NCBI RefSeq assembly: GCF_003987855.1
Contig: NZ_RXIZ01000013.1
Span: 1-64,000 of the forward strand
Length of the DNA: 64,000 nucleotides
Reading direction: 5' to 3'
Origin: Hyphomicrobium sp.
GTDB lineage: Bacteria; Pseudomonadota; Alphaproteobacteria; Rhizobiales; Hyphomicrobiaceae
The notes under the pieces were generated by a model that worked only from the letters and a program-made list of their open reading frames with translations, made no database searches and had not been told where the DNA came from. Every line of letters starts with the position of its first letter. Positions within the stretch are counted from its first letter, which is position 1. Made by a program: the position numbers and the translations under genes. Shown one piece after another: positions 36,749 through 48,561 of the stretch.

Positions 36749-37075
36749 TCAGCGCTTCTTCGTCTTCTCGCTGGCCTTCAGGATCGAGGCGATCACGCCG
36801 GGGAAGCGCTTTTCCAACTCGGCGCAACGCAGAGCATTGACGACTTCCGTGCCACGCCGCTCCGAGCGAATGAGCCCGGCTTCGCGCAGCACCTGGAAAT
36901 GGTGCGACTGCGTCGATTTTGGCAAGTCGGCGGGCGCCGCCATCGAGCAGTTCATTCCACAGCTGCCGCCCGCGAGCTTCTTCACGATCTCGAGCCGCGT
37001 CGGATCGGCGAGCGCATAAAGGATGCTCTCGAGGGTCACGTCCTCGACCGCTGGATGAACAAATGGCCTCTGCAT
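36749..37075 (-). CDS. ArsR-family HTH transcriptional regulator
   Basis: ESILYALADPTRLEIVKKLAGGS...KSTQSHHFQVLREAGLIRSERRGTEVVNALR. Start taken at MQRPFVHP (ATG 37075). Confidence 0.9.
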   Translation of the reverse strand: MQRPFVHPAVEDVTLESILYALADPTRLEIVKKLAGGSCGMNCSMAAPADLPKSTQSHHFQVLREAGLIRSERRGTEVVNALRCAELEKRFPGVIASILKASEKTKKR

Positions 37076-37101
37076 AGGCACAGAGATAGCCACGGAAAAG
37101 T

Positions 37102-37139
37102 GAACTTTCAATAGTTCGAAAATCTTGAACTACGGAACT
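37102..37139. promoter_or_regulatory. Cluster of GAACT/AGTTC half-sites in ArsR-SDR divergent region
   Basis: GAACT-ttcaat-AGTTC-gaaaatctt-GAACT-acg-GAACT; includes TAGTTC-N9-GAACTA. Confidence 0.5.
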
Positions 37140-37230
37140 TAGGCATTATCTGCCTGTTGTCCGGGGCGCCTGCCATCCGATTGGCCGGCCTACTCTGAAG
37201 GACGGTCGTTCAAAATGTTGCGAGAAGATC

Positions 37231-38007
37231 ATGTCCAAATCTCTTTCGGGAAAAATTGCCGTCGTCACCGGAGCCAGCCGTGGCATCGGACGAAGCATCG
37301 CTGAGACGCTGGCTGCGAAGGGCGCCCTCGTTGCTGTCCACTACGGAAAAAGTAAAGGGCCAGCGGAAGAAGTCGTGGCAAAGATCAAGGCTGCAGGGGG
37401 CGATGCTTTCGCAGTCGGCGCCGATCTAGCCAAGAAAGGCGCGGCTCAGGCGCTGTTTGCCGCTGTAGATCAGGAATTGAAGCAGCGGACCGGAGACACG
37501 AAATTCGACATTCTCGTCAATAACGCCGGTATCGCGCCGTTCGTCAATTTTGCGGATACGACGGAAGAGATCCTCGATGAGATCTACACTGTGAACGTCA
37601 GATCTCTCTTTCTCATCACGCAAGAAGCGGTGAAGCGTCTGCGCGACAACGGCCGCATCATCTCGACGTCCTCAGGGGTCGTCCGCACGCCGCTCCCGGC
37701 AGTTGCCGCCTATTCGATGCTGAAAGCTCCGCTCGACAACCTAGCGAAATCGTTGGCGGTCGAACTCGGCCCGCGCGGCATCACAGTCAACACGGTCGCG
37801 CCGGGCGTCATCAATACAGATATGGCTGCCGACTTCGTGAACAACGCGGAGGGTCAGGCATTCGCGATCAGCAAGCAGGCGCTGAAGCGGATCGGGCAGC
37901 CGGACGATGTCGCGGACGTCGTTGCGTTTCTGGCTGGACCGGATTCGCGCTGGGTTACGGGGCAAACAATCGATGTCACCGGCGGCAGCGTGATCACGTT
38001 CGCCTGA
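37231..38007 (+). CDS. SDR-family oxidoreductase
   Basis: KIAVVTGASRGIGRSIAETLAAKGA; ILVNNAGIAPF; AYSMLKAPLDNLAKSLAVELGPRGITVNTVAPGVI. Confidence 0.93.
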   Translation: MSKSLSGKIAVVTGASRGIGRSIAETLAAKGALVAVHYGKSKGPAEEVVAKIKAAGGDAFAVGADLAKKGAAQALFAAVDQELKQRTGDTKFDILVNNAGIAPFVNFADTTEEILDEIYTVNVRSLFLITQEAVKRLRDNGRIISTSSGVVRTPLPAVAAYSMLKAPLDNLAKSLAVELGPRGITVNTVAPGVINTDMAADFVNNAEGQAFAISKQALKRIGQPDDVADVVAFLAGPDSRWVTGQTIDVTGGSVITFA

Positions 38008-38045
38008 CCTTTTTTCTCCTCTCTCCGCATCGTCCCTCCCGAACT

Positions 38046-38078
38046 GACGCCAAAATCTGCGATTTTGGCGTCTTTTTT
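38046..38078. terminator. Rho-independent terminator after SDR gene
   Basis: GACGCCAAAATC-TGC-GATTTTGGCGTC perfect 12-bp stem followed by TTTTTT. Confidence 0.85.
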
Positions 38079-38234
38079 GCGCGAAAGCCAAATGTCGCGC
38101 TTGCATTCGGGCCACAAATGCTGCTCTTTTCGGCGGCTTCATTCGAAAAAGGCCGCAAAACAGCGTGTTTTTGGGCTTCGACGATGTAGTGTCTGATCGG
38201 AAAGCGATTCGAAATCGCATTGAGAGGGAAAACA

Positions 38235-38567
38235 ATGGCAAAAGCAGCCGCGCCGGCTAAGGCAGCAAAAGCACCAGTTAAAGCGAAAGTTGATACCGTT
38301 ACTCTGAAGCACATCGCTGCGACGCTGGCAGAAACGCATGAGATTCCGAAGAAGCAGTCGGTCGCGCTTCTCGAAGACCTCGTCGCTCAGATTTCCAAGC
38401 ACCTGAAGAAAGGCGCGCGTATCCGCATCGGCGGTCTTGGCGTGCTGCAGGTTCGCAAGCGCCCGGCGCGCATGGGCCGCAACCCGGCCACGGGCGAAGC
38501 CATCAAGATCAAGGCTTCGAAGAAGATCGCTTTCCGCGCTGCGAAAGAGCTGAAAGAGTCGATCTAA
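38235..38567 (+). CDS. HU-family DNA-binding protein
   Basis: LAETHEIPKKQSVALLEDLVAQISKHLKKGARIRIGGLGVLQVRKRPARMGRNPATGEAIKIKASKKIAFRAAKELKE. Confidence 0.93.
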   Translation: MAKAAAPAKAAKAPVKAKVDTVTLKHIAATLAETHEIPKKQSVALLEDLVAQISKHLKKGARIRIGGLGVLQVRKRPARMGRNPATGEAIKIKASKKIAFRAAKELKESI

Positions 38568-38591
38568 GCCTATTTGGCGTAGAATTGCGAA

Positions 38592-38622
38592 AGGCTGCCG
38601 GAGGTCACGGCAGCCTTTTTTA
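38592..38622 (+). terminator. Rho-independent terminator of the HU gene
   Basis: AGGCTGCCG-gaggtca-CGGCAGCCT followed by TTTTT. Confidence 0.9.
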
Positions 38623-38654
38623 TTTTCAATCTGCCATTTCCTCGCGGGCGTCCG

Positions 38655-39827
38655 TCAGCCGTTGCGGAAATAATTCGTGATGAAGCGCTCGTAGATCGTC
38701 GTCAGCGTTTCGAGGTCGGAAACGCTGGTGTTTTCGTCGACCTGATGGATGGTGGCGTTGACGAGACCAAACTCAACCACGGGACAAATGTCCTTGATAA
38801 AGCGCGCATCCGATGTGCCGCCGCCGGTCGTCAGCGCTGGCGTGCGTCCGGTGATCGATTTCACCGCATCCTTCAGCGTCGATACGAGCGGTCCTGGTTT
38901 GGTGAGGAAGACATCGCCGGTGCCGGAGAATTCCAGATCGTATTTAGCGCCGACCTCGTCTGCCGCGGCAGCGACATTGTCGCGAACCCATTCCTCGATT
39001 TTGGCCCGCGTCCAGAAATCGTTATAGCGGATGTTTGCGCGCGCCACGGCGCGGCCAGGGATTACGTTGGTTGCCGTATTGGGAACCGAAATGACGGTCA
39101 CCTGCAGGTTCGACGGCTGGAAGGCTTCCGTGCCCTCATCGAGCGTGGTGGTCGACAAGCGATCGATGATGCGAGCAAGTTTCGGCACCGGATTGTCTGC
39201 CAACTGCGGATAGGCCGAGTGTCCCTGCTTGCCGTGAACCACAAGATCGATCGTCAATGAGCCGCGCCGGCCAATGCGAATTTCGTCGCCGAGAGCGGTG
39301 GGGTTCGATGGCTCGCCGACGAGGCAGGCGTCGATCACTTCGTCGCGCGCCTTCAACCAGTCGAGAATTTTCATCGTGCCGTTGATGGCGGCGCCTTCCT
39401 CGTCACCCGTGATGATGAACGACAGCGAACCCCTGGGCAGGCCGTTAAAATGATGGATGTATTTCAGGGTCGCCGCCACGAACGCGGCGATGCAGCCCTT
39501 CATGTCGACGGCGCCCCGCCCGTAGAGAATGCCGTCGCGGACGTCGCCTGCGAACGGCGGCACGGTCCAGGCGGCCGCGTTGCCGACGGGTACGACATCG
39601 GTGTGGCCGGCGAACGAGAGATGCGGGCGCCCGTTGCCAAGCCGCGCATAGAGATTGTCGACGTCAGGGGTTCCCGGCTCGGAAAATACGAGACGATGGC
39701 ACGTGAAGCCCGCGGGCTCGAGCACGTTCTGCAACAGCGTCAGCGCGCCGGCTTCATCCGGTGTCACGCTCTCGCAGCGGATCAGCGCCTGCGCGAGTGC
39801 GACGGGGTCTGTTGGGACGAGGGTCAT
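38655..39827 (-). CDS. dapE: Succinyl-diaminopimelate desuccinylase
   Basis: LSFAGHTDVVPVGNAAAWTVPPFAG; LYGRGAVDMKGCIAAFVAA; TGDEEGAAINGT; LTTGGGTSDARFI. Confidence 0.95.
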   Translation of the reverse strand: MTLVPTDPVALAQALIRCESVTPDEAGALTLLQNVLEPAGFTCHRLVFSEPGTPDVDNLYARLGNGRPHLSFAGHTDVVPVGNAAAWTVPPFAGDVRDGILYGRGAVDMKGCIAAFVAATLKYIHHFNGLPRGSLSFIITGDEEGAAINGTMKILDWLKARDEVIDACLVGEPSNPTALGDEIRIGRRGSLTIDLVVHGKQGHSAYPQLADNPVPKLARIIDRLSTTTLDEGTEAFQPSNLQVTVISVPNTATNVIPGRAVARANIRYNDFWTRAKIEEWVRDNVAAAADEVGAKYDLEFSGTGDVFLTKPGPLVSTLKDAVKSITGRTPALTTGGGTSDARFIKDICPVVEFGLVNATIHQVDENTSVSDLETLTTIYERFITNYFRNG

Positions 39828-44592: not shown

Positions 44593-45858
44593 ATGCATCA
44601 TTTCCACTACAAGGCAGGTATCCTCCATGCGGAGGATGTGAGCCTCGCGCAGGTCGCTGCGGAGGTCGGAACTCCGTTCTATTGCTATTCGACGGCAACG
44701 CTCGTTCGGCACTACGAGGTTCTGGCCAAAGCGTTCGCTGGCCAGAACGCGCTCATCTGCTTTGCCGTTAAAGCCAACTCGAACCAGGCCGTGCTGAAGA
44801 CGATGGCGCAGCTCGGCGCGGGCATGGATGTCGTCTCGGAAGGTGAGCTGCGCCGCGCGCGCGCCGCCGGCGTTCCGGCATCGAAGATCATCTTCGCGGG
44901 TGTCGGCAAGACGCGGGATGAAATGGGCTACGCGCTCGAACAGGGCATTCTCGGCTTCAATGTCGAGAGCGAGCCCGAGCTTCAAGCCCTCAGCGACGTC
45001 GCGAGCGCTGCCGGCAAAACCGCGTCAATTGCGATCCGGGTCAATCCGGACGTCGACGCTAAAACACATGCGAAGATCTCCACCGGCAAGGCGGAGAACA
45101 AGTTCGGCGTGCCTTACGTCGATGCGCGCCGTCTTTACGCCGAGGCCGCTAAGCTGCCGGGCATCAAGATCTCCGGCATTCATATGCACATAGGCAGCCA
45201 GATCACCGATCTCGCGCCATTCCGGGACGCCTTTCGGCTGATGGCGGATCTCGCGCGCGATCTCAAGGCGCACGGTCTGGCGCTCGAGCATCTCGACATA
45301 GGCGGCGGACTTGGCGTGCCCTACCGTGGCGCGAACGATATTCCCCCGACGCCGGACGAATACGCGGCCGTGGTGAAGGAGCAGCTCGGCAGCCTCGGTC
45401 TCAAGATCGTCATGGAGCCGGGCCGCATGATCGTGGGCAACGCCGGCGTGCTCGTGACGAAGGTCATCTACGTCAAGGAAGGCGCCGACAAGACTTTCAC
45501 GATCGTGGATGCCGCCATGAACGACCTCATTCGGCCAACGCTCTATGAGGCCTATCACGACATCTGGCCGGTGCGGGAGGCGTGTAGCGACCTCTCGCCG
45601 ATCCAGCAGGATATTGTCGGCCCGGTCTGCGAAACGGGAGATTTTCTCGCGGAGGACCGGACGTTACCGCCGGTCGGACCCGGTGATCTCATCGCGGTGA
45701 TGACAGCGGGCGCGTACGGCGCGGTGATGTCATCGACATACAATAGCCGTCTGCTGGTGCCAGAAGTTCTCGTCAACGGGGACGCCTACGCGGTCGTCCG
45801 GCCAAGACCCAGCTATGACGATCTGATGTCCGCCGATCATCTGCCACCGTGGCTTTAG
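44593..45858 (+). CDS. lysA: Diaminopimelate decarboxylase
   Basis: FYCYSTATLVRHYEVLAKAF; CFAVKANSNQAVLKTMAQLGAGMDVVSEGEL; HIGSQITDLAPF; EPGRMIVGNAG; GPVCETGDFLAEDR. Confidence 0.97.
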   Translation: MHHFHYKAGILHAEDVSLAQVAAEVGTPFYCYSTATLVRHYEVLAKAFAGQNALICFAVKANSNQAVLKTMAQLGAGMDVVSEGELRRARAAGVPASKIIFAGVGKTRDEMGYALEQGILGFNVESEPELQALSDVASAAGKTASIAIRVNPDVDAKTHAKISTGKAENKFGVPYVDARRLYAEAAKLPGIKISGIHMHIGSQITDLAPFRDAFRLMADLARDLKAHGLALEHLDIGGGLGVPYRGANDIPPTPDEYAAVVKEQLGSLGLKIVMEPGRMIVGNAGVLVTKVIYVKEGADKTFTIVDAAMNDLIRPTLYEAYHDIWPVREACSDLSPIQQDIVGPVCETGDFLAEDRTLPPVGPGDLIAVMTAGAYGAVMSSTYNSRLLVPEVLVNGDAYAVVRPRPSYDDLMSADHLPPWL

Positions 45859-45887: not shown

Positions 45888-45929
45888 GTTTGCACTTGAC
45901 GCAAACTCGAATTGCACTACATGCAATTC
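45888..45929. promoter_or_regulatory. Two matching dyad operators upstream of the XRE gene
   Basis: TTGCACTTGACGCAA (45890-45904) within GTTTGCACTTGACGCAAAC, and TTGCACTACATGCAA (45912-45926) within GAATTGCACTACATGCAATTC; 22 bp centre to centre. Confidence 0.65.
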
Positions 45930-46274
45930 ATGTCGAAGCGCCCGAAGCCTAAAAGCATCGATGACCGCATCGCAGAGATCTGCGAGCGGCTTGCGAATGC
46001 GCGCAAGCTTTCAGGTCTGACGCAATCGACAGTCGCAGATGCGATGGGGCTATCGAACAGCCAATATTCGCGCATCGAGAACGGCGCCACCGATATGACG
46101 CTCAGGCAATTTCTAGTGGCCTGCGAAGAGGTTCGTCTCGATCCGTCCCTGCTGTTTGCAAACCCCGTCGACACGGAGGTCGCCGACCTCCAGACGCGAT
46201 TGCGCGCGTCGGAGGGAAAACTGGCGGCCATCACCCGGATGCTCAAGAGCGACAAGGACATCTGGGAAAGCTGA
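45930..46274 (+). CDS. XRE-family HTH transcriptional regulator
   Basis: IAEICERLANARKLSGLTQSTVADAMGLSNSQYSRIENGATDMTLRQFLVACEEV. ATG at 45930 favoured over the TTG at 45912. Confidence 0.85.
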   Translation: MSKRPKPKSIDDRIAEICERLANARKLSGLTQSTVADAMGLSNSQYSRIENGATDMTLRQFLVACEEVRLDPSLLFANPVDTEVADLQTRLRASEGKLAAITRMLKSDKDIWES

Positions 46275-46286
46275 AAGGACGACGAC

Positions 46287-47117
46287 ATGACGGAAGATAC
46301 ACCGGAAGCTCAGTCCACTTCGAAGCCGACCAAGACCGCTATCACGATGGTTCTCGACCGATCCGGGTCGATGGACGCCTGCCGCGACGCCACAATCGAA
46401 AGCGTGAACGCCTACCTGACCAAGACCCGCGCCGATCAAAACCTGAAAGATTCTGATTTCGAACTCGCAATCTTCGATACCGAGGCCTACGACGTCATTC
46501 GGCGCGGCGACCTCGTCGCGACGAGGGACATCGCACGCGACGAATTCGAGCCACGCAGCGGCACGCCCCTGCTGGACGCGGTCGGACGGGGAATCGACGG
46601 TCTCGATCGACGCGCGCGTGACGACAACGCAATCCTGGTGGTCGTGACGGACGGATTAGAGAATTCGAGCCGCAAGCATACCTATGAAAGCATCAAAGCG
46701 CTTCTCGATGAGCGTCAGAAGAAGGGCTGGCTGGTGCTCTTTCTCGGCGCTGGGCTCGAGAGCGCGCGTGAAGGCATTCGCATGGGTGTGCAATCTGCAA
46801 ACGTTGCGAGCATAGCAGTCGACCAAGCCTGTCTGAGGGCATCAATGGATGCGATGGCCGAAGCAAATGCCGTCTACGCCGCTGCCCCGTCCGTTTCCGC
46901 GAGGCGAATGTTCGTCGATAACGAAAAATTCTCGCCAGAAACGCGCGCGGCGATGGGAGATAGCACCGGCGGACGCGGGCTTCTGGGCGCTTCAGGTAGC
47001 GGCTTGAAGAAGAAATTTTTTAACCGCAAGCCGTCGGGGGCGACCATGCCGAAAGCTCCTCCAGCGCGTGAGGCCGACACTTGGTCGGGCGCCAACGAGG
47101 ACGCTTGGCGCAAATAA
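46287..47117 (+). CDS. vWA domain protein
   Basis: MIDAS motif: AITMVLDRSGSM (DxSxS), SGTPLLDAV, VVVTDGLENSS. 12 bp downstream of the XRE gene. Confidence 0.9.
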   Translation: MTEDTPEAQSTSKPTKTAITMVLDRSGSMDACRDATIESVNAYLTKTRADQNLKDSDFELAIFDTEAYDVIRRGDLVATRDIARDEFEPRSGTPLLDAVGRGIDGLDRRARDDNAILVVVTDGLENSSRKHTYESIKALLDERQKKGWLVLFLGAGLESAREGIRMGVQSANVASIAVDQACLRASMDAMAEANAVYAAAPSVSARRMFVDNEKFSPETRAAMGDSTGGRGLLGASGSGLKKKFFNRKPSGATMPKAPPAREADTWSGANEDAWRK

Positions 47118-47199
47118 AAATTGCAGCGAATCGAGAATGCAGGCCGGGAGCGATTCCGGCCTGTTTTCATTGGAACGTTTGATTCTACAGGCGCGCCGC

Positions 47200-48561
47200 T
47201 CAGTTCTGTAAGGCGCTTGCTGGCGATTGCGGATTGCCGCTGCAGCCAGGGCAACGGCGAAGTGTGGGCGGGTGCTTCCTAAAGGCCATCGCGCTGTCGA
47301 GCACGCGCAAGCAGGTTTCAGACGGGGCTTCGGTATCGATGCTGACACCTGAAAACCCGATCACTTCGCCGGCGAGATCGACGACGCGGGTGCAGATCAC
47401 GCGCAAGTGCCTGTCGCCGAATATGTAGCTTTCGGTGATCGGGTCATCGCTCAGCTTCGATTGGTCGAGGATGCGCTTCACGGTCGCCAAGGTCGGGCCG
47501 CTCATCACGTCCCAAATGGTTTTGCCTTCGAGTTCGAGGCCCGTCATGTTGTGAATGCTTGCGAACCTGTCGTTGGCGCGAACGTGGCGGAAGTTCATAT
47601 CCAAAAAGCAGAGGCCGACCGGTGCCTGCTTGTAGAGCGTGGCGAGCTGGTGCAGCTGCTGGAAGGGGGAATCGTCGAGCGGTTCGCTCGTCTCTTCGCC
47701 GGACGCAAACTCATCGAGGGCGCGCCGCGCGTCTGCAGGCGCCATGGGCTTACCGTACAGCCAGCCTTGTCCCAAATCGCAGCCCAGTTCGCGCAGCACG
47801 GCCTCCTCTTCGGGTGTTTCCACGCCTTCGGCGACGACCGTGATGGCAAGGCTCTGCCCAAGGCCGATGATGGCGGCGGCGATGCGCCTCTTGCTTCGGT
47901 CGCGGTGAAGCGCGCGAACGAAGCGGGCGTCGATCTTGAGCTTGCGGAAGGGAAACGCTTCGAGCCGGGCAAGGCTCGAATAGCCGGTGCCGAAATCGTC
48001 GAGTGCGACTTTGATCCCCATGCCATCGAGTTCCGCGACGTGGGCGTAGGCCGCCTCCTCGTCGGAGATCAGCGAACCTTCGGTAACTTCGACCTGGAAC
48101 CGGTCGAGGGGAAATCCGGTGACACGGACGGTGTCGGCGAACGTCCTCGGGAAGCCGTTCTGGATCAACTGCTTAGGCGAGAGGTTGAACGCCAGGAAGA
48201 ATTTGCCGGGCCAAGTTGCGGCTACGGGGCAAGCCAGCTGCACCAGATGGTTGAAGAGCCGATCAATAAGATCGTGCTGTTCCAGTTCCAAAATGAATTC
48301 GGCGGGCGGGATCGCGCCGCGGGCCGGATCGGTCCATCGCGCCAGGACCTCGAAGCCTCGCAACGCACCTGATCGAATATCGACAATTGGTTGAAATGCC
48401 GGCCAAATATGCTCATTCTCAATCGCGAAAGACAAGCGGGCGCCAACGGTTGATCCGCTGTCGCCAAGTGTGGGAACGAGCATTATTCTTCCTTGGTCTA
48501 GGTCGGCTACGCCGGGACACTTCCGTATGCGTCCAATCTGGGCTTGATACTCATTTACCAA
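47200..48561 (-). CDS. EAL-domain c-di-GMP phosphodiesterase with C-terminal PAS-like domain
   Basis: FQPIVDIRSGALRGFEVLARW, FNLSPKQL, VALDDFGTGYSSLARLEAFPFRKLKID, VVAEGVETPEEEAVLRELGCDLGQGWLYGKP; C-terminal LYKQAPVGLCFLDMNFRHVRANDRFASIHNMTGLELEGKTIWDV. Confidence 0.9.
   Translation of the reverse strand: MVNEYQAQIGRIRKCPGVADLDQGRIMLVPTLGDSGSTVGARLSFAIENEHIWPAFQPIVDIRSGALRGFEVLARWTDPARGAIPPAEFILELEQHDLIDRLFNHLVQLACPVAATWPGKFFLAFNLSPKQLIQNGFPRTFADTVRVTGFPLDRFQVEVTEGSLISDEEAAYAHVAELDGMGIKVALDDFGTGYSSLARLEAFPFRKLKIDARFVRALHRDRSKRRIAAAIIGLGQSLAITVVAEGVETPEEEAVLRELGCDLGQGWLYGKPMAPADARRALDEFASGEETSEPLDDSPFQQLHQLATLYKQAPVGLCFLDMNFRHVRANDRFASIHNMTGLELEGKTIWDVMSGPTLATVKRILDQSKLSDDPITESYIFGDRHLRVICTRVVDLAGEVIGFSGVSIDTEAPSETCLRVLDSAMAFRKHPPTLRRCPGCSGNPQSPASALQN

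What the first reader, a model, noticed from the sequence alone, without database searches (positions are those of the whole stretch)
45888..47117. XRE regulator + vWA protein cassette with two matching operators overlapping its own promoter and start codon
Sequence: TTGCACTTGACGCAA and TTGCACTACATGCAA share TTGCACTnnnnGCAA. Both sit in perfect dyads and are exactly 22 bp apart (about two helical turns). The first contains a TTGACG -35-like element, and the second ends 4 bp before the likely ATG, suggesting a very short or absent leader. The vWA gene starts 12 bp after the XRE stop and has an intact MIDAS. Inference: a self-regulated two-gene module, with cooperative autorepression like phage or controller-protein switches. 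The role of the vWA protein is unknown.
Basis: partly seen in the sequence, partly recalled or inferred. Interest (0 to 1): 0.65.

Follow-up and report, generated by a model that had tools for sequence, protein, structure and literature searches.

The report
Self-repressed XRE–vWA gene pair
Some Hyphomicrobium genomes carry a compact two-gene unit in which a small DNA-binding protein most likely switches off its own promoter through two matched sites, and this regulator and its partner, a metal-site peptide-binding (vWA) protein, end in the same short tail (D-x-W-x-x), which suggests that they bind each other or share a binding partner.

Summary
Two dyads (45888-45906 and 45909-45929, 22 bp centre to centre) precede an XRE gene (45930-46274); a vWA gene with a complete MIDAS (46287-47117) and a terminator (47139-47164) follow. 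All six XRE-vWA pairs found (5 of 22 Hyphomicrobium genomes, three chromosomal sites) keep both dyads while spacer and upstream DNA diverge. In the genus the near-exact operator occurs at a promoter only here. The dyads enclose a sigma-70-like -35 (TTGACG) and -10 (TACATG); the -10 lies 6 nt (five loci) or 7 nt (one) before the start codon, so a leaderless mRNA is predicted. Lambdoid phages with otherwise unrelated repressors use the same TTGCACTTGACGCAA word beside CI-like and Cro-like genes. Autorepression is well supported, though not shown by experiment. New here: XRE and vWA both end in D-x-W-x-x-COOH in 6/6 pairs, with further D-x-W copies in the vWA tail; none of about 80 unlinked vWA relatives ends this way. 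My preferred, unproven reading is that the vWA MIDAS binds D-x-W peptides and so couples vWA to the repressor. The pair matches no known defence or toxin-antitoxin family. New variant of a known kind.

The parts
45888..45906 (.). Operator 1: perfect dyad GTTTGC-ACTTGAC-GCAAAC enclosing the -35 element
   Evidence: Sequence; TTGCACTTGACGCAA identical in 5 of 6 loci and one mismatch in the sixth
45896..45901 (+). -35 element TTGACG (CTTGAC at 45895-45900)
   Evidence: Sequence; matches the alphaproteobacterial sigma-70 consensus CTTGAC-N17-CTATAT (PMC2873474); conserved in orthologues. The generic scan for strict E. coli promoters found none
45909..45929 (.). Operator 2: perfect dyad GAATTGC-ACTACAT-GCAATTC enclosing the -10 element and abutting the start codon
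   Evidence: Sequence; TTGC-N7-GCAA kept in 6 of 6 loci
45918..45923 (+). -10 element TACATG (CTACAT at 45917-45922); predicted +1 at 45930, the A of ATG, i.e. leaderless mRNA
   Evidence: Spacer 16 or 17 nt, and 6 nt (five loci) or 7 nt (one locus) from the -10 to the start codon; no ribosome-binding site before the XRE start; inference
45930..46274 (+). XRE-family regulator, 114 aa: HTH at residues 19-72, recognition segment LSNSQYSR, C-terminal helix, tail KDIWES
   Evidence: Pfam HTH_3 2.8e-9 and HTH_31 5.8e-9; six orthologues, LSNSQYSR and K-D-x-W invariant; dN/dS 0.10-0.28
46287..47117 (+). vWA protein, 276 aa: MIDAS D24-S26-S28/T93/D122, disordered tail with two D-x-W motifs, ending DAWRK
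   Evidence: PHROG 7371 2.2e-34, Pfam vWA models only below cutoff; AF2 core pLDDT about 97, tail mostly under 55; alignment; own Shine-Dalgarno AAGGA 7 nt before its ATG
47139..47164 (+). Likely intrinsic terminator of the two-gene unit (11-bp stem, then T-rich)
   Evidence: Scan (such sites are also expected by chance, mean 1.7 per region); a like hairpin follows the G048 copy

Best explanation
A self-contained, negatively autoregulated bicistron. XRE dimers bind two TTGC-N7-GCAA operators that sit on the same face of the helix, one over the -35 and one over the -10, so that binding shuts the promoter. The mRNA is leaderless for XRE; vWA is translated from its own Shine-Dalgarno site. The vWA protein is a peptide-capturing MIDAS domain. 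The preferred mechanism for its role is that the MIDAS metal takes the Asp of D-x-W peptides. One such peptide is the C-terminal tail of XRE; the other copies lie in the vWA protein's own tail and would compete, or link several vWA subunits. Capture of the XRE tail would tie the state of the vWA protein (free, bound to its own tail, or bound to an unknown cellular or phage target) to repression of the pair. Shown by sequence: the operators, their conservation, promoter overlap, gene order and shared tails. Inferred: repression, leaderless start, cooperativity. Hypothesis: the MIDAS/D-x-W link (about 0.35). The confidence given is for the autorepression part.
For: Operators kept in 6/6 loci while the 7-8 bp spacer and upstream DNA vary. 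XRE recognition segment LSNSQYSR identical in all six. TTGCACTTGACGCAA with at most one mismatch occurs at a promoter only upstream of this XRE; the other genus hits inspected look like plsX coding sequence or scattered chance matches. The double-operator pattern is present in 7 of 398 genomes of the order: two are this operon, three are one shared coding-like sequence, one is a single chance-like match, one is an unrelated TetR promoter; the control pattern gave 0. Same operator word next to CI-like and Cro-like genes in lambdoid phages. Both genes under purifying selection: XRE dN/dS 0.10-0.28, vWA 0.14-0.40. For the tail link: XRE and vWA both end D-x-W-x-x-COOH in 6/6 pairs, chance about 0.0007 per protein end, and the vWA gene was the only one of 45 window ORFs of 150 aa or more to end so. 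In a second genus, the truncated ORF before a tailed vWA gene ends WDK*, again with Trp third from the end. MIDAS sites of other vWA proteins take an acidic side chain or an extended peptide (PMC4660213, PMC7159879).
Against: No binding, expression or start-site data. The -10 is a weak match to the E. coli consensus. The AF2 model of vWA leaves its tail disordered, and a read-through XRE-vWA fusion showed no confident docking (pTM 0.59); coordinates and PAE were not available, so this test is weak. The D-x-W tail could equally bind a third protein. In the six orthologous pairs the motif is inherited, so 6/6 is not six independent events.
Confidence: 0.8

Rival explanations
1. The shared D-x-W-x-x C-terminus is not a ligand of the vWA MIDAS but a tag read by a third factor (a protease, an AAA+ chaperone or a membrane protein) that controls both proteins, for example by regulated turnover of the repressor.
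For: The motif sits at exactly the same distance from the carboxyl end in both proteins (W at -3, D at -5 in all six pairs), which fits recognition of a free C-terminus. The tail is disordered in the model.
Against: The vWA tail also has one or two internal D-x-W copies, not expected for a strictly C-terminal tag. No third gene travels with the pair: downstream genes differ at the three sites.
Confidence: 0.3
2. A toxin-antitoxin-like pair: XRE is the antitoxin and autorepressor, vWA the toxic or growth-arresting partner, held by the XRE tail.
For: Small XRE gene first, 12-13 bp gap, autorepression of both genes, patchy distribution (5 of 22 genomes) at three sites. One copy lies about 3.5 kb from a gene with a strong hit to the candidate defence family PDC-S37.
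Against: No PADLOC match for vWA. The XRE hits to the HipB/Y4mF and PezA antitoxin models are far below cutoff. No catalytic domain besides a peptide-binding fold is recognised. I know of no vWA toxin.
Confidence: 0.1
3. XRE is an autorepressor and vWA is only co-transcribed cargo; the tails resemble each other through chance or exchange of sequence.
For: Many vWA relatives in phages and in the same family have no adjacent XRE of this kind. Tails diverge fast apart from the motif.
Against: All six XRE orthologues are linked to a tailed vWA; no XRE orthologue was found without one in 103 family genomes. The tail motif is kept under divergence to about 50% identity.
Confidence: 0.2
4. XRE activates rather than represses its promoter.
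For: XRE proteins can activate (own knowledge); operator 1 reaches the -35.
Against: Operator 2 covers the -10 and reaches the predicted start, a position that excludes RNA polymerase; CI-like and Cro-like proteins with the same operator word are repressors by family knowledge.
Confidence: 0.05

Closest known systems
Lambdoid phage CI/Cro-type immunity operators (IMG/VR contigs L180, L182, L183)
   Same: HTH regulator with TTGC-N7-GCAA operators, including the identical TTGCACTTGACGCAA that embeds the -35 TTGAC
   Different: Phage repressors carry an extra C-terminal region like that of LexA/CI proteins and control a divergent switch with Cro; here one short XRE controls one bicistron, with no divergent promoter
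Restriction-modification controller (C) proteins
   Same: Small XRE autoregulator with paired operators over its own, often leaderless, promoter (own knowledge)
   Different: No methylase or nuclease; the cargo is vWA; the PADLOC control-protein match is weak (E 0.0047)
PHROG 7371 vWA proteins of tailed phages and their bacterial relatives
   Same: vWA core and MIDAS, about 30-40% identical
   Different: No XRE partner of this kind found, and none of those compared has the D-x-W-x-x-COOH end
MoxR-vWA systems (CbbQO, RavA-ViaA, ternary conflict systems)
   Same: A vWA MIDAS that captures an acidic or extended peptide
   Different: No MoxR AAA+ gene seen next to the pair; the vWA protein is small and stands alone
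Type II toxin-antitoxin systems with XRE antitoxin (HipBA, PezAT)
   Same: Small XRE gene first, autorepression
   Different: No known toxin domain; XRE far below the antitoxin cutoffs

Membership tests
XRE-family autoregulator | HTH_3 / HTH_31 domain above Pfam cutoff | tested here: met
   37.3 bits (cutoff 23) and 36.6 bits (cutoff 27)
XRE-family autoregulator | Conserved dyad operators over its own promoter in orthologues | tested here: met
   6 of 6 loci
XRE-family autoregulator | Protein binds the operators and lowers expression | not testable with these tools
   Needs EMSA or reporter
vWA domain with MIDAS | DxSxS, conserved Thr and Asp, Rossmann-like fold | tested here: met
   Residues invariant across 62 sequences; AF2 core of high confidence with vWA hits in the PDB
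PHROG 7371 | Match to the family profile | tested here: met
   E 2.2e-34 over residues 13-209; the tail is outside the profile
R-M controller protein system | Adjacent restriction or modification gene | tested here: not met
   Neighbours are lysA, an EAL-PAS gene and a DUF4175 gene in the window; other sites
Type II toxin-antitoxin | Recognised antitoxin or toxin family match | tested here: not met
   All NCBIfam antitoxin hits far below cutoff; vWA has no PADLOC hit
Type II toxin-antitoxin | vWA expressed alone harms growth and XRE relieves it | not testable with these tools
   Needs a growth assay
MoxR-vWA system | Adjacent MoxR-type AAA+ ATPase | tested here: not met
   None among the genes identified next to the pair; not every neighbour was scanned
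Phage CI/Cro switch | Divergent second regulator sharing the operators | tested here: not met
   Upstream is the co-oriented lysA gene

The most novel reading that the evidence does not exclude
A new type of regulatory module in which a vWA MIDAS reads a C-terminal D-x-W peptide on a DNA-binding repressor and on its own tail, making a metal-dependent peptide-capture switch that sets its own expression, possibly a sensor of phage or chaperone state carried at several chromosomal sites.
Probability: 0.25. Interest if true: 0.75.

Novelty: new variant of a known kind. Interest (0 to 1): 0.5.

Why it matters
Small vWA proteins of this family occur in hundreds of phage and bacterial genomes and have no known function. 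A bacterial copy locked to its own regulator, with a short shared C-terminal motif, gives a concrete, testable handle on what the vWA domain binds. It would also show a leaderless promoter whose -35 and -10 are each wrapped in an operator, a compact autorepression design.

Tried and rejected
Motif counts in the window alone: not above chance with one mismatch, so the case rests on conservation. A wider regulon: rejected for near-exact sites, since the TTGCACTCGACGCAA matches shared by several Hyphomicrobium genomes are in plsX-like coding sequence; looser sites were not excluded. Alternative upstream starts (TTG 45912, ATG 45921): not favoured, as they lie inside operator 2 and upstream of the predicted +1, and the ATG matching 45921 is out of frame in G046 copy 1. 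A phage home for the pair: no XRE relative in viral contigs. A tail-Trp rule in all vWA relatives: rejected, since Trp-rich tails occur mostly in one viral clade and overall near background, and D-x-W-x-x-COOH only in the XRE-linked clade. Structure of the fusion (code TGA=W) to see docking: inconclusive. The XRE of G032 was not found, probably because the vWA contig starts inside it.

Full report
WHAT IS THERE. The window is part of a Hyphomicrobium-like genome (a relative fetched is a Hyphomicrobium MAG whose contig matches G048 in length, and G048 is in the same genus as G000). Between lysA (44593-45858) and a minus-strand EAL-PAS gene (47200-48561) lie an XRE gene (45930-46274) and a vWA gene (46287-47117).

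IS IT REAL. Motif statistics in the window alone are weak. Comparative evidence is strong. Six XRE-vWA pairs were found in five of 22 genomes of the genus, and no XRE orthologue in the other family genomes searched. All six have both dyads at the same place: TTGCACTTGACGCAA (five identical, one with a single change), then a 7-8 bp spacer that is not conserved, then TTGC-N7-GCAA, then the start codon. The upstream DNA differs, except between close copies. In the genus, TTGCACTTGACGCAA with up to one mismatch appears at a promoter only before this XRE; the recurrent second hit, TTGCACTCGACGCAA, lies in plsX-like coding sequence. A looser double-operator pattern hit 7 of 398 genomes in the order: two are this operon, three carry the same coding-like sequence, one is a lone chance-like match, and one is a TetR promoter with a similar palindrome; the reversed control gave none.

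PROMOTER GEOMETRY. Operator 1 encloses TTGACG (45896-45901), operator 2 encloses TACATG (45918-45923). The spacing is 16 bp here and 16 or 17 bp in the relatives. The alphaproteobacterial consensus is CTTGAC-N17-CTATAT (PMC2873474); here the sequence reads CTTGAC-N16-CTACAT. The -10 ends 6 nt before the start codon in five loci and 7 in one, so +1 falls on or next to the start codon. There is no Shine-Dalgarno sequence before XRE, whereas vWA has one (AAGGA). Leaderless mRNAs are not unusual in alphaproteobacteria (PMC7566282). A strict E. coli promoter scan finds nothing, so the promoter call rests on conservation.

PHAGE PARALLEL. A scan of viral contigs for the operator word found six contigs. 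Three are near-identical, coding-like matches; three (L180, L182, L183) are lambdoid phages with TTGC-N7-GCAA sites beside CI-like genes (in L180 and L182 between CI-like and Cro-like genes) and at a further promoter, including the identical TTGCACTTGACGCAA. Their repressors are related to the window XRE only by the HTH fold. The pair itself was not found in phages.

THE TWO PROTEINS. XRE is 58-90% identical to the window copy among the other five and under purifying selection (dN/dS 0.10-0.28), as is vWA (0.14-0.40). The vWA core is predicted with high confidence, with vWA domains as PDB neighbours; all MIDAS residues are invariant. Its sequence family is PHROG 7371, of unknown function; relatives lie in 210 phage records. 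In a tree of 62 relatives the XRE-linked vWAs and one from another genus (G032) form one clade, 100/99 support.

THE SHARED TAIL. XRE ends KDIWES, KDIWES, KDAWDD, KDVWET, KDVWET, KDAWET. The vWA partners end EDAWRK, GDAWNE, ADSWGA, DDIWGS, DDIWGS, GDIWGR. Trp is always third and Asp fifth from the carboxyl end. The vWA tail has a further D-x-W upstream (two in G046 copy 1). None of about 80 relatives without this XRE ends this way, and the expected frequency is about 0.0007 per protein. In G032 the contig begins inside the gene before a tailed vWA; its last codons read WDK-stop, again Trp third from the end. The six pairs are homologous, so they are not independent, but keeping the motif in otherwise variable tails indicates selection.

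HOW IT PROBABLY WORKS. XRE represses the bicistron (well supported). vWA MIDAS domains bind acidic side chains or extended peptides (PMC4660213, PMC7159879), so the tail on the repressor and the copies on vWA itself suggest a peptide-capture link between them (hypothesis, about 0.35). A third partner that reads the free C-terminus is nearly as likely. AF2 did not help: the tail is disordered in vWA alone and no confident docking appeared in a read-through fusion, and neither contacts nor PAE could be inspected.

MOBILITY. lysA and the DUF4175 gene are close neighbours in most genomes of the genus; the pair sits between them only in G000 and G048. G043, G060 and G046 copy 2 share a second site (the G046 copy with a 7-kb insertion downstream); G046 copy 1 is at a third, about 3.5 kb from a helicase-nuclease gene matching the candidate defence family PDC-S37. 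The pair thus behaves as a small portable unit. A defence role is possible but has no support at the other two sites.

VERDICT. Observation confirmed, interpretation supported as far as sequence can go. New variant of a known kind (autorepressed XRE module) with an unusual partner and a shared tail worth testing.

Noticed in passing
window 47200-48561 (-): EAL-PAS gene between the pair and the DUF4175 gene; present next to lysA in G045 and G053 but absent from this place in G048 and G059, so the lysA-DUF4175 gap seems to collect insertions.
   Followed up: partly
L018 9893-16890 (G046): DUF4011/MTES_1575 helicase-nuclease (PDC-S37-like, also weaker Hhe and MkoA matches) plus two unmatched proteins near one XRE-vWA copy.
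   Followed up: partly
L169 (G438): Double palindrome TTGCACTGGATGCAA-N6-TTGCACTAGATGCAA directly before a TetR-type gene with a divergent SDR gene: the same half-site design with an unrelated regulator.
   Followed up: partly
L180, L182, L183: Lambdoid phages with TTGC-N7-GCAA operators about 45-47 bp apart next to CI-like and Cro-like genes, and a further copy at a promoter before a short unknown gene.
   Followed up: partly
L160, Myxococcus phage Mx1: A related vWA gene a few kb from a TROVE (Ro60-like) gene and a SLOG gene.
   Followed up: no
L106, L117, L121, L081 (viral contigs): One viral vWA clade ends in Trp-Pro repeats such as PWTAPKAEAPWTPPQ, a different Trp-rich tail.
   Followed up: partly
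window 37001-39000: Local G+C dip (0.56-0.58 against about 0.62).
   Followed up: no
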